64,000 nt of DNA from the NCBI GenBank assembly GCA_902572735.1, contig CACGGX010000009.1, positions 1 to 64,000 on the forward strand. The letters run 5' to 3'. Below are positions 59,237 through 64,000 of this stretch, piece by piece. The notes beneath the pieces were generated by a model. The model saw nothing but the letters and a program-made list of their open reading frames with translations, had not been told where the DNA came from and did not search any database. Origin of the DNA: an uncultured Alphaproteobacteria bacterium. GTDB lineage: Bacteria; Pseudomonadota; Alphaproteobacteria; HIMB59; GCA-002718135. The position numbers and the translations under genes were made by a program. Every line of letters begins with the position of its first letter. The stretch's first letter is position 1.

Positions 59237-60244
59237 TTAAAGGTAGTGAGCTTTATCTTTAATACGAGCCATTACTTCCTTAGTAGCTTCTTCAGATCCA
59301 TCATGAAATGTACCCATTAGTTTATCTAAAAAACTAGTATTTCCACCTGAATAATTACATTCAAAATATTTATGATGAATATAATGCATATAATCACCTG
59401 TAGGAATTGATACACCATTTTTAAAAGTCATTTTTTCATATCCTGTATGCCCAGGTGTTGGTGCTAAACCAGCATGAAAAACATGGTACATTGCAACTAG
59501 AGGATGAGAGGGAATAATCCAGTGAATTAGAATTCCTGAAAAATATAGTATGTGTTCTATAGGATGCATAGACATGCCTGACCAAGCCCCTGTATTAGTA
59601 TTACGATGATGAACTTTATGAGCAATTTTATAAAGTGGTGCCCAATGCAATAATCTATGAGTTAAATAGAAATGTGCATCTCTTATAAAAGGAACAAGAA
59701 AAAACATAAAGCAACAATACACTGGGTACGCTTCCCAGCTTACATAAGGAATAAGTTGATTTGCAAATGCCCAAAATGTGATTACTTCGTATGCGGTCCA
59801 TAAGGGAATAGCGCTACAAAAAGTATAAAATAAATTATCTTTAGTCTGATCATTAAACAAAAATGTTGAATTGTTTTTTTCTAAAGGTCGTGGATTATAC
59901 TTAAATGAAGTACCTTGTGTTTTTAATCTAAGATGAAAAAAACCTGTCCAAAGAAGTATGATTGCTGCATTTCTGAAAAAAATATAAGAAACCCAACCAA
60001 CTTCAAAAGTCTTCATGGTTTCTAATGAAGGTGTTAGAAATAGATAAGTTGCTACTGTTATTGCTCCAAAAACAAATGTCCATGGAAAAAATATTCCTGG
60101 AAACTTAAAAAAATATTTTATCAATTTTATTGGATTATAAAAAATTTCTTTAGGAGGATTAATACTTATAGTACCAAAAGGCTTCCAATGACCTCTTTTG
60201 TCTCTTGTTCCAAAATTTTCATCATTTAATTTGTCTTTATTCAC
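59237..60244 (-). CDS. Fatty acid hydroxylase / sterol desaturase superfamily membrane protein
   Basis: His boxes HFYLTH, HKVHH, HYIHH; several TM segments. Confidence 0.88.
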   Translation of the reverse strand: MNKDKLNDENFGTRDKRGHWKPFGTISINPPKEIFYNPIKLIKYFFKFPGIFFPWTFVFGAITVATYLFLTPSLETMKTFEVGWVSYIFFRNAAIILLWTGFFHLRLKTQGTSFKYNPRPLEKNNSTFLFNDQTKDNLFYTFCSAIPLWTAYEVITFWAFANQLIPYVSWEAYPVYCCFMFFLVPFIRDAHFYLTHRLLHWAPLYKIAHKVHHRNTNTGAWSGMSMHPIEHILYFSGILIHWIIPSHPLVAMYHVFHAGLAPTPGHTGYEKMTFKNGVSIPTGDYMHYIHHKYFECNYSGGNTSFLDKLMGTFHDGSEEATKEVMARIKDKAHYL

Positions 60245-60247
60245 AAC

Positions 60248-61081
60248 CTAACCTCTTTTTTCTAAATTATTTAAAAATATATCTAGTTCATTTTCATTAA
60301 TTTCTACAATATTTTTTTTCTCAGGAAAAGCACCAGTATGAACATCATCATAAAACTCTTGAAAGGCTGACTCTCTTTCTTTTTGAAGTCTTGCAAATTC
60401 TTGTTGAAAATCCCTATATTTTTTTGCGTGACGAGGTATTTTACCTTTTGTGGTTCCTAATATGTCGCATCCGAAAACATATTCTACGTCACAACCAGGT
60501 CCACTTCCCATTGACATAACTGTTGGTTCTACTTTTTTTGAAATAACCTCTGCAATTTTATATGGGACACACTCCATTTCTATAGCAACACCTCCAGCAT
60601 CTTGAATTTTTAAACACTGATCATAAATCCACATGGCTTCTGTTGCTGTTTTGCCTACTGCAACAAAACCTCCAGTCCAAGTTCGTTTAGGTGGAACCAA
60701 ACCTACATGGCCTAAACAAGGAATTCCCTCTTTGAATAATTCTCTAATTAGATCAAAACGTGTATTACAATAAAGCATATCAAAACCATGCTCTAATATT
60801 TTAAATGAAAATTTTTTTGCTTCATCAATTGTTGGGATAAAACTATCGGGAGCACCACAGTGCATGAATGCAGTAGGAGCGGCATCTCTCATTTTAACTA
60901 ATTGATCAAAATTAGGATGATCATCATCATTTTTGTACTTACCTGCTAAACCAGTTGCAAGCATCTCAAAACCAACCTTATCAGCTGCTAATGCTTCTTC
61001 TTCATTTTTAATTAATATACAAACTAATTTTGTTTTACCTTTAAATTTTTTTAAGTCCTTAACAGTTATTTTTTTTCTCAT
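60248..61081 (-). CDS. PanB-like (ketopantoate hydroxymethyltransferase superfamily) protein, paralog 2
   Basis: GHVGLVPPKRTWTGGFVAVGKTATEA, AIEMECVPYKIAEVI, SMGSGPGCDVEYVFGCDILGTTKGKIPRHAKKYRDF match the PanB C-terminal half. Confidence 0.8.
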   Translation of the reverse strand: MRKKITVKDLKKFKGKTKLVCILIKNEEEALAADKVGFEMLATGLAGKYKNDDDHPNFDQLVKMRDAAPTAFMHCGAPDSFIPTIDEAKKFSFKILEHGFDMLYCNTRFDLIRELFKEGIPCLGHVGLVPPKRTWTGGFVAVGKTATEAMWIYDQCLKIQDAGGVAIEMECVPYKIAEVISKKVEPTVMSMGSGPGCDVEYVFGCDILGTTKGKIPRHAKKYRDFQQEFARLQKERESAFQEFYDDVHTGAFPEKKNIVEINENELDIFLNNLEKRG

Positions 61082-61083
61082 AA

Positions 61084-62097
61084 CTAATTAGTACTCGGTA
61101 CATCAACATTCAAATAATAATTTTTATCTTTTGCTTGTTTAAAAATAGCGGGAATAATCTCTTTATAAGCATTGATTATACCTTTTCTTGGAGTTGGCAT
61201 TTGATCTTTAACTACATTATGAAAAGCTTTGAGGTTATGACAAGGAATTTTTGGAAAAATATGATGCTCAATATGATATTCCATATTCGAATATAAAAAA
61301 CTAAAAAAAGGGTTCATGATTACTGTTCTTGTGCTTTTTCTATGGTCTTTAACATTGTCAGCTAATCCTGCATGTTGTGTCATTCCGCATATCATTAAAA
61401 TAGTATTTCCATAAAATGGTGGAAGAATTAACATGATTATTGGCAACCATGTTTTAAAAAAAATTGAAGATAAAATTATAATTAACCAAAAACCAACATA
61501 TACTCTCGAACTATTAATAATTTTTTTAATCTCTTTTTCAGGTACTGTAATATTTACAACAGGAGTAATTATTCCAAATGAATGCTTAATAATTTCAAAA
61601 TGAGTAAAATGTCTTATTTTTTGTATGTTGATTATTGGACCAAGTGGCAAAAAGTTTAAAAGAAATCTAATAGGCTCTGTTGGTTTAGGACTATTGTTTT
61701 CATAATCGTACACCTCCTCATGTGTAAATATGGTGTAAGTATGGTGATGAAAATGACTCCATTTCCATCTAACTGCTTCAAAACCACCAAGTAAAGAAGT
61801 TATATGATAAAAAAATTTATTTAACGCTCTAGTTTTAAAATATGTTTCATGATTCGTTTCATGTTGAATGCTAATGATTTTACAGTAGAAAATATTTCCA
61901 TAAAGTAGAAGAGCAGGAATTGACCATAAAGTACCCCAACTTATAATACAAAGATATCCACTTAATATTAGAGCAACAATAAATATGGATACATCTGTTA
62001 AGCCTTTTATATCAGATCTCTTAGAAAACTCCTTTAAAGTTTTCTTATCTATATTTGGTTTATACCAATTTTTTAAATCAACTTCACCTGCAAACAT
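61084..62097 (-). CDS. Fatty acid desaturase family membrane protein
   Basis: His boxes HETNH, HFHHH, HIEHH; TM segments. Confidence 0.9.
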   Translation of the reverse strand: MFAGEVDLKNWYKPNIDKKTLKEFSKRSDIKGLTDVSIFIVALILSGYLCIISWGTLWSIPALLLYGNIFYCKIISIQHETNHETYFKTRALNKFFYHITSLLGGFEAVRWKWSHFHHHTYTIFTHEEVYDYENNSPKPTEPIRFLLNFLPLGPIINIQKIRHFTHFEIIKHSFGIITPVVNITVPEKEIKKIINSSRVYVGFWLIIILSSIFFKTWLPIIMLILPPFYGNTILMICGMTQHAGLADNVKDHRKSTRTVIMNPFFSFLYSNMEYHIEHHIFPKIPCHNLKAFHNVVKDQMPTPRKGIINAYKEIIPAIFKQAKDKNYYLNVDVPSTN

Positions 62098-62928: not shown

Positions 62929-62947
62929 AAAATCTCCAAAAAAATAT

Positions 62948-63265
62948 TTAATCTATCTTAATGAAAATTTTGTCATTATCAACTTTAACTGGATATGTTT
63001 TTAAATCCTCACACGCTGGTGGGCTTAAAGCTTCTCCAGATTTAATATTAAAAATTCCCTGGTGCATTGGACATTCAATTTCATCATCCATAACCAAACC
63101 ATCTTCAAGATGTACCGACTCGTGTGTACAAATTCCATCCGTAGCATAAAAACCATCTGTTAACCTATAAACACAAAAAGTTTTATCTTGATGGTCAAAT
63201 CTGATGAGATCCTCTTCTTCAATACTATCTGTAGAGCCTACTTCAATCCAATTTTCTTCAGACAT
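62948..63265 (-). CDS. Rieske [2Fe-2S] ferredoxin (MocE/BphF-like)
   Basis: Rieske motif CTH-x16-CPMH in a 105-aa stand-alone protein. Confidence 0.92.
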   Translation of the reverse strand: MSEENWIEVGSTDSIEEEDLIRFDHQDKTFCVYRLTDGFYATDGICTHESVHLEDGLVMDDEIECPMHQGIFNIKSGEALSPPACEDLKTYPVKVDNDKIFIKID

Positions 63266-63317
63266 AAATCATATATAATATCTATTTTGTGAAAATAAAT
63301 ACAAAATAATTAAATTG

Positions 63318-64000
63318 TTATTTCTGTATAAGTTTATTTAATTTTTGATTTTGGTCTGAGAGAATTTGTTTATCTACAATGGTATCTTTCTCAGTTAATT
63401 TGGAAGTTATTCTAATGTCACGGCCTACTTTTCCTATGGTTCCAACACCACATGCTCCTCTTATTTTATTATTTTTTAGGAAAAAATAAATAACACCATT
63501 ATTAATATCATCACCTCTTTCGATGATTTCATCATACTCATCACAAATACCAGTCAGTTGAAGATTCAAATTAAATTGATCAGACCACATCCAAGGAATT
63601 GAAGTGTATTCAGTTTTTACTCCAGCGATATTTTTTCCAGCACATATTCCATGATTTTGTGCATGTTGATAAGACTCGAGTCGCATATTTCTTTCATAGA
63701 ATGGATGATAGAAATTAGATACGTCACCTGCTGCGTAAACATCTTTAATAGAAGTTTCACAAAATTGATTAGTTACAATACCATTATCAAGCTTTAAATT
63801 TGTATTTTCAAATAACTTTACAGTCGGGGTTGAGCCTATACCTGCAATTATAAAATCTGTTTCTATTATAGAATTATCATTTAATAAAATTTCGTAATTA
63901 CCATTTTTTTTAGTTATTTTTTCTATCTGTTTATTTAATATTATTTCATTTCCATGTTCTATATGAGTATTTTGAACTAAATCAGCAATTTTTTTGGGTA
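63318..64000 (-). CDS. FAD-dependent ferredoxin reductase, partial (5' end beyond window)
   Basis: The frame stays open from 63318 to the window edge; reading it gives DFIIAGIGSTPTVKLFE...TSIKDVYAAGDVSNFYHPFYERNMRLESYQHAQNHG, typical of Rieske/rubredoxin-type reductases. The track ORF 63318..63686 is only its C-terminus. Confidence 0.88.
   Translation of the reverse strand, partial: PKKIADLVQNTHIEHGNEIILNKQIEKITKKNGNYEILLNDNSIIETDFIIAGIGSTPTVKLFENTNLKLDNGIVTNQFCETSIKDVYAAGDVSNFYHPFYERNMRLESYQHAQNHGICAGKNIAGVKTEYTSIPWMWSDQFNLNLQLTGICDEYDEIIERGDDINNGVIYFFLKNNKIRGACGVGTIGKVGRDIRITSKLTEKDTIVDKQILSDQNQKLNKLIQK

What the first reader, a model, noticed from the sequence alone, without database searches (positions are those of the whole stretch)
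59237..64000. Operon pairing a Rieske electron-transfer chain with two membrane di-iron oxygenase-type proteins and two PanB-like proteins
Seen: six consecutive minus-strand genes, mostly separated by 2-20 bp: ferredoxin reductase (partial), Rieske ferredoxin, PanB-like 1, fatty-acid-desaturase-like, PanB-like 2, sterol-desaturase-like. Known: a desaturase-type oxygenase with its own ferredoxin and reductase resembles the MocD/MocE/MocF set of rhizopine catabolism, and PanB-fold enzymes do aldol-type hydroxymethyl transfer or C-C cleavage. Inference: a catabolic or modifying pathway in which a small substrate is hydroxylated by the di-iron proteins and then cleaved by the PanB-like proteins. 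The alternation PanB/oxygenase/PanB/oxygenase suggests two parallel or sequential oxygenase + lyase modules. I do not recognise this as a described pathway, but could not search to confirm.
Basis: partly seen in the sequence, partly recalled or inferred. Interest (0 to 1): 0.8.

Follow-up and report, generated by a model that had tools for sequence, protein, structure and literature searches.

The report
PanB-derived partner of methyl-removing oxygenases
An ocean bacterium of the SAR11 group carries an operon that appears to strip methyl groups from small sugar-like molecules with membrane iron enzymes, together with two repurposed copies of a vitamin-B5 enzyme (PanB) that probably catch the released one-carbon unit on folate instead of letting toxic formaldehyde go free; the gene pairing recurs in many unrelated bacteria and I found no description of it.

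Summary
In detail: six tightly packed minus-strand genes (59237-64000). The operon is larger than reported. Beyond the window lie the rest of the reductase, a third oxygenase (a second desaturase-like gene) and a divergent sugar-type ABC transporter; downstream lie lactonase, sugar-acid dehydratase and PLP-enzyme genes. The Rieske protein passes the MocE cutoff.

The two PanB-like proteins are not PanB. They keep the fold, His136 and Glu181, but all 31 aligned members have lost Asp84, Lys112 and Glu114 and do not conserve Asp45; the same genome has a true PanB elsewhere. Across 80 GTDB loci this family sits beside desaturase-type or fatty-acid-hydroxylase-type oxygenases, MocE ferredoxins, CUT2 transporters and, in rhizobia and rhodobacters, inositol genes. 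Twelve of 80 loci also carry purU and two carry folD plus purU, linking the family to folate one-carbon flux.

Best reading: oxidative O-demethylation of methylated sugars or cyclitols, with the PanB-like protein moving the resulting hydroxymethyl group to tetrahydrofolate. The aldol-cleavage role and the two-module reading are not well supported. Enzyme activity and substrate are inferred, not shown.

The parts
59237..60244 (-). FA_hydroxylase (sterol-desaturase type) membrane di-iron oxygenase, 335 aa, GTG start; the only PF04116 gene found in this genome
60248..61081 (-). PanB-like protein 2 (PanB fold family, PanB metal/keto-acid residues lost)
61084..62097 (-). MocD-like FA_desaturase-type oxygenase (His boxes HETNH, HFHHH, HIEHH), 337 aa; 46% identical to the copy at contig 64553-65539, 35% to the rhizobial MocD-like protein
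62101..62928 (-). PanB-like protein 1 (proposed hydroxymethyl-to-THF transferase), 275 aa; model best matches PanB structures
62948..63265 (-). MocE-family Rieske ferredoxin, the only one above the MocE cutoff in this genome
63318..64000 (-). MocF-like ferredoxin reductase; continues to contig position 64547 (409 aa in all)
58317..59192 (-). SGL/SMP-30 family lactonase, probable downstream sugar-acid pathway step
56552..58285 (-). IlvD/EDD sugar-acid dehydratase (PRK06131 above cutoff; L-arabinonate dehydratase model 837 bits against cutoff 882)
55483..56532 (-). PLP enzyme, D-cysteine desulfhydrase/CuyA-like; co-oriented, link to the pathway unclear

Best explanation
An oxidative O-demethylation operon for a methylated sugar, sugar acid or cyclitol. 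The CUT2 ABC transporter imports the substrate. Membrane di-iron oxygenases (two MocD-like desaturase-type and one FA_hydroxylase-type, possibly specific for different methyl positions) hydroxylate an O-CH3 group, using electrons from NAD(P)H through the MocF-like reductase and the MocE-like Rieske ferredoxin. The product is an O-CH2OH hemiacetal that would otherwise break down to formaldehyde. The PanB-like proteins, descended from ketopantoate hydroxymethyltransferase but with its Mg2+/2-oxo-acid site lost, transfer that hydroxymethyl group to tetrahydrofolate, giving 5,10-methylene-THF and the free sugar or cyclitol. The C1 unit is then oxidised via FolD and Fhs (SAR11) or FolD and PurU (other bacteria). 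The sugar goes through SDR, lactonase and IlvD-type dehydratase. Shown here: gene content, conservation, family membership, loss of the PanB metal site, purU/folD linkage. Inferred: demethylation as the chemistry, THF as acceptor, the substrate class.
For: MocE above cutoff and MocD/MocF-like partners; MocDEF is an established part of rhizopine (3-O-methyl-scyllo-inosamine) catabolism (PMC10107442; Bahar 1998, cited in PMC5789663). PanB-like lies with LacI, MocD-like, MocE, MocF, inositol genes and rhizopine-type transporters in Rhizobium and rhodobacters. In 57 GTDB loci with at least 6 kb on both sides, 49 have an oxygenase and 46 a MocE-type Rieske gene within 6 kb. Oxygenases are of three classes, FADS, FAhyd and, in one SAR11 copy, PhyH, so the common denominator is the product rather than one partner. 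purU in 12/80 loci, folD too in two, zero hits for five control enzymes; PurU over its curated cutoff in the three tested; only 1-5 full purU copies per 4-7 Mb in 13 host genomes. The native reaction of PanB is hydroxymethyl exchange with THF (PMC7770189). The 2-oxo-acid/Mg site is lost but His136 and Glu181 are kept. SAR11 oxidises methyl groups through THF, and HTCC1062 lacks formaldehyde-activating enzyme (PMC3160333); FolD is in this genome and Fhs in 35 of 41 genus genomes. R. mesoamericanum mocDEF homologues are induced by root exudate whose most concentrated component is pinitol, an O-methyl-inositol (PMC5789663).
Against: No activity measured. I know of no PanB structure with folate bound, so retention of a THF site cannot be checked. 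purU/folD lie near only 15% of PanB-like genes and near none of the SAR11 ones examined. Some MocDEF-like loci have no PanB-like neighbour. Relatives lack PanB-like 2 but keep the FA_hydroxylase gene. The window has no inositol genes next to the operon, so the substrate may differ from that of the rhizobial operons.
Confidence: 0.6

Rival explanations
1. C-demethylation. The oxygenases hydroxylate a carbon-bound methyl group of a branched sugar or cyclitol to C-CH2OH, and the PanB-like protein runs a reverse-PanB (retro-aldol) reaction next to a ketone made by an IolG-type dehydrogenase, again giving methylene-THF.
For: Closest to the native reverse reaction of PanB; IolG-like genes are near 24 of 57 PanB-like genes with full flanks; purU/folD linkage fits equally well.
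Against: The Mg2+/2-oxo-acid residues used for enolate chemistry are gone in every member. The known MocDEF substrate is an O-methyl compound.
Confidence: 0.12
2. The PanB-like protein is a folate-independent lyase, isomerase or hydrolase acting on the hydroxylated sugar or hemiacetal; purU and folD are there only to clear formaldehyde-derived C1 units from the demethylases.
For: New strictly or nearly conserved residues (Glu167, His217, Trp134, Tyr102 in PanB-like 1 numbering) suggest a rebuilt active site. The PEP mutase/isocitrate lyase fold relatives include many lyases. GbcAB-like glycine-betaine demethylase genes lie near the same operon in Phyllobacterium.
Against: Does not by itself explain why the family descends from the THF hydroxymethyltransferase and travels with several oxygenase classes.
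Confidence: 0.2
3. Membrane lipid modification: the desaturase-like and hydroxylase-like proteins act on acyl chains or sterols/hopanoids, and the adjacency to PanB-like genes is incidental.
For: Both oxygenases belong to broad Pfam families that include lipid enzymes.
Against: DesA, DesB and beta-carotene hydroxylase models score 25-34 bits against cutoffs of 475-500. Sugar-type transporters, LacI regulators and sugar/cyclitol enzymes recur beside these genes across several bacterial groups.
Confidence: 0.05

Closest known systems
MocDEF of rhizopine catabolism (Sinorhizobium meliloti L5-30, Rhizobium leguminosarum)
   Same: MocD-like desaturase-family oxygenase + MocE-family Rieske ferredoxin + FAD ferredoxin reductase, beside a CUT2 transporter whose binding protein matches only the rhizopine-binding model (83 bits, cutoff 420)
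   Different: Rhizopine moc operons are described as mocDEF, mocR, mocBA and mocC with no PanB-like gene mentioned (PMC10107442); the window has three oxygenases, two PanB-like genes and a sugar-acid branch instead of inositol genes
Ketopantoate hydroxymethyltransferase (PanB)
   Same: Same fold (best structural hits 3vav, 1m3u, 1oy0; query TM-score 0.6-0.7); His136 and Glu181 conserved, Asp209 conserved with one exception
   Different: Scores 86-118 bits against cutoffs of 207 and 272; Asp84, Lys112 and Glu114 lost, Asp45 not conserved; not seen next to pantothenate genes
6-O-methyl-D-galactose oxidative demethylation in marine Flavobacteriia (cytochrome P450 system, PMC10033563)
   Same: Oxidative removal of a sugar O-methyl group by an oxygenase with redox partners
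   Different: P450 rather than membrane di-iron enzymes; formaldehyde is released; no PanB-like partner described in the abstract read
THF-dependent demethylation in SAR11 (DmdA/GcvT-type aminomethyltransferases, PMC3160333)
   Same: Methyl-derived C1 units are put on THF and oxidised
   Different: Different protein family and different substrates (DMSP, glycine betaine)

Membership tests
PanB (ketopantoate hydroxymethyltransferase) | Score above curated PanB cutoffs | tested here: not met
   86 and 102.5 bits against 207.55 (TIGR00222); 100 and 118 against 272 (NF001452)
PanB (ketopantoate hydroxymethyltransferase) | Mg2+/keto-acid residues Asp45, Asp84, Lys112, Glu114 (E. coli numbering; roles from general knowledge) | tested here: not met
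   Kept in E. coli PanB and this genome's true PanB; Asp84, Lys112, Glu114 absent in all 31 PanB-like sequences and Asp45 not conserved
PanB (ketopantoate hydroxymethyltransferase) | PanB fold | tested here: met
   AlphaFold2 pLDDT 88.5; top Foldseek hits are all PanB
MocDEF-type oxygenase system | MocE-family ferredoxin above cutoff | tested here: met
   TIGR02377, 137.4 bits against 136.15
MocDEF-type oxygenase system | Desaturase-family oxygenase and FAD ferredoxin reductase in the same operon | tested here: met
MocDEF-type oxygenase system | Demonstrated O-demethylation | not testable with these tools
   needs enzyme assay
Rhizopine catabolism | Rhizopine-binding protein (NF052284) above cutoff | tested here: not met
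   83 bits against 420
Membrane fatty-acid desaturase (DesA/DesB) | Score above curated desaturase cutoffs | tested here: not met
   25.6 and 33.9 bits against 500

The most novel reading that the evidence does not exclude
The PanB-like family is a previously undescribed class of tetrahydrofolate-dependent enzyme that takes a hydroxymethyl group directly from the hemiacetal made by a demethylating oxygenase, so that oxidative demethylation by unrelated oxygenase classes yields methylene-THF without free formaldehyde; it is widespread in Alphaproteobacteria, including abundant SAR11, and reaches Acidimicrobiia and Anaerolineales.
Probability: 0.45. Interest if true: 0.88.

Novelty: new variant of a known kind. 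Interest (0 to 1): 0.74.

Why it matters
If true, it gives a function to a large protein family that is misannotated as the pantothenate enzyme PanB (1,921 proteins above threshold in one search, true PanBs possibly among them; annotated as 3-methyl-2-oxobutanoate hydroxymethyltransferase in plasmid records). It would explain how small marine bacteria and rhizobia can demethylate O-methyl sugars and cyclitols such as pinitol while handling formaldehyde, and it would add methylated carbohydrates to the one-carbon substrates of SAR11, among the most abundant ocean bacteria. It is directly testable in Rhizobium strains that carry the compact version of the operon.

Tried and rejected
Lipid desaturation or sterol modification: curated desaturase models score far below cutoff. 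Genuine PanB duplication: active-site residues lost, and a true PanB lies elsewhere in the genome. A strict one-oxygenase/one-PanB module: rejected because relatives lose PanB-like 2 but keep the oxygenases, and on the tree the PanB-like family switches between oxygenase classes about 12 times (shuffled mean 31). Homarine catabolism as an alternative: the search found no paper linking homarine genes to this gene set. Literature searches for PanB with desaturase/Rieske genes, with demethylation and folate, with pinitol or rhizopine catabolism, and with SAR11 found no description of this pairing; the library holds only openly licensed papers. The first alignment used a wrong open reading frame (a neighbouring, longer one) as the genome's true PanB; it was replaced. 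An apparent PurU hit in the window at 29436-30032 scores below the cutoff and matches a PurN-sized frame. A first call of the final report failed its format check.
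Full report
Observation. The six genes are present as described and each belongs to the named family. Intergenic gaps are 2-52 bp. The contig continues beyond the window (70,065 bp in all): the reductase is complete (409 aa), five bp upstream lies a second desaturase-like gene, and a CUT2-type binding protein, ATPase and permease are transcribed divergently. 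Downstream on the same strand follow an SGL lactonase, an IlvD/EDD sugar-acid dehydratase and a PLP enzyme. The probable unit is ten genes. The genome is 1.32 Mb, 83% complete; database names of close homologues point to Pelagibacteraceae, i.e. SAR11.

What the oxygenase part is. The Rieske protein is a MocE-family ferredoxin above its curated cutoff (137.4 against 136.15) and the only one over that cutoff in the genome, whereas the genome has seven PF00487 genes and one PF04116 gene. Besides the two in this operon, four of the other five desaturase-like genes resemble the operon copy at 43-54% identity, and three of those four sit near CUT2 transporter, Gfo/Idh/MocA or PhyH genes. One shared electron chain for several oxygenases is therefore plausible (inference). 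The window's binding protein matches only the rhizopine-binding model, well below cutoff. Curated fatty-acid desaturase models score far below cutoff. MocDEF is known from rhizopine catabolism (PMC10107442; Bahar et al. [quoted passage not shown] As general knowledge, not tested here: alkylglycerol monooxygenase, a fatty-acid-hydroxylase-type enzyme, cleaves ethers through a hemiacetal, which is the chemistry proposed here.

What the PanB-like proteins are. They score 86-118 bits against PanB cutoffs of 207 and 272. The AlphaFold model of PanB-like 1 (pLDDT 88.5) matches PanB structures best. A genuine PanB is encoded at C1:66910 and a fourth family member at C6:2747. In the alignment with E. 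coli PanB and the genome's own PanB, all 31 PanB-like sequences have lost Asp84 (to Gly, Ala, Ser or Thr), Lys112 (to Tyr; one Thr) and Glu114 (to small residues, Asn or Pro), and Asp45 is not conserved. His136 and Glu181 are kept throughout, Asp209 in all but one, and Glu179 is new. Ketoisovalerate aldol chemistry is therefore unlikely; that these residues bind Mg2+ and the keto acid is from general knowledge of the E. coli structure.

Co-occurrence. In SAR11 relatives the PanB-like genes sit with desaturase-type, FA_hydroxylase-type or PhyH-type oxygenases and CUT2 transporters in many rearranged orders. The C6 copy lies beside a PhyH-type oxygenase and GH4 glycosidases, an order conserved in most relatives examined, one of which has an additional desaturase-like gene inserted. 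In named plasmids of Rhizobium, Sinorhizobium, Aestuarium and Marivivens the order is LacI, MocD-like, MocE, (MocF), PanB-like, with inositol genes, a rhizopine-type transporter or both nearby in several. A GTDB scan returned 80 loci: 40 contain the desaturase type, 32 the FA_hydroxylase type, 62 a Rieske gene, 61 a LacI gene and 37 an IolG-like gene. Of 57 loci with at least 6 kb on both sides, 49 have an oxygenase and 46 a Rieske gene within 6 kb. As a yardstick, eight such genes in 1.32 Mb would put one within 6 kb of about 7% of random positions in this genome (estimate). The set reaches Acidimicrobiia and Anaerolineales. Across 110 PanB-like sequences, 99 have an oxygenase in the fetched stretch and 96 within 6 kb; on the tree the oxygenase class switches about 12 times. 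The family thus travels with the reaction rather than with a single partner. These loci were found through the PanB-like protein and are related by descent, so the counts are not independent events.

Folate link. purU occurs in 12 of the 80 loci, directly adjacent to the PanB-like gene in several (Phyllobacterium L120, L133; a betaproteobacterium L103; an Acidimicrobiia MAG L092), and two loci (L101, L106) carry folD as well; five unrelated control enzymes gave no hit. Three purU products tested pass the PurU cutoff. The 13 host genomes checked have about one to five full-length purU genes in 4-7 Mb, so chance would put one in about 0.6% of such stretches (estimate); 15% are seen. R. rosettiformans also has purU at the edge of its operon region. 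Phyllobacterium neighbours include GbcAB-like glycine-betaine monooxygenase, another demethylase. Methylene-THF to formyl-THF (FolD) to formate (PurU) is the expected outlet for a C1 unit placed on THF. SAR11 instead uses FolD and Fhs (PMC3160333); FolD is found in this genome and Fhs in 35 of 41 genomes sampled in the genus, so its absence here is probably assembly loss.

Proposed mechanism. Transport; O-methyl hydroxylation by MocD-like or FA_hydroxylase-type enzymes with MocF and MocE; transfer of the hydroxymethyl group to THF by the PanB-like protein; C1 oxidation; processing of the sugar through SDR, lactonase and dehydratase. In the G021 and G038 loci a transporter about 90% or more identical to that of the window sits with the IlvD-type dehydratase, plus SDR, lactonase or a DHDPS-type aldolase, favouring an O-methylated aldose or sugar acid for the window operon, whereas the rhizobial and rhodobacter operons point to O-methyl inositols. 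Root exudate rich in pinitol (145 uM) induces mocDEF homologues and inositol genes in R. mesoamericanum (PMC5789663), in line with this; whether a PanB-like gene follows them there was not checked.

Verdict. The catabolic, oxygenase-centred reading is well supported; the THF-transfer role of the PanB-like family is the best current explanation but is inferred. No description was found in the open-licence library.

Noticed in passing
G000:C6:2735-5659 (L027): Fourth PanB-family gene of this genome next to a PhyH-type (Fe/2-oxoglutarate) oxygenase and GH4 glycosidases with a peptide-type ABC binding protein; the order is conserved in most relatives examined.
   Followed up: partly
G000:C5:24461-33577 (L143) and C22:32-8172 (L145): Further MocD-like oxygenases beside CUT2 sugar transporters, PhyH-type and Gfo/Idh/MocA-type genes: SAR11 seems to hold several plug-in oxygenase clusters sharing one MocE ferredoxin.
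   Followed up: partly
L107, L133 (Phyllobacterium): GbcAB-like glycine-betaine monooxygenase genes lie a few kb from the MocDEF-PanB-like operon, with purU next to the PanB-like gene in L133.
   Followed up: partly
window 55483-56532: PLP enzyme of the D-cysteine desulfhydrase/CuyA type at the end of the operon; why an amino-acid or sulfonate-type enzyme sits there is unexplained.
   Followed up: no
window 53279-55493: PdxA-like dehydrogenase and MR/MLE-family dehydratase (L-rhamnonate dehydratase model 236 bits, below cutoff 393) on the plus strand, convergent with the operon; possibly a neighbouring sugar-acid pathway.
   Followed up: no
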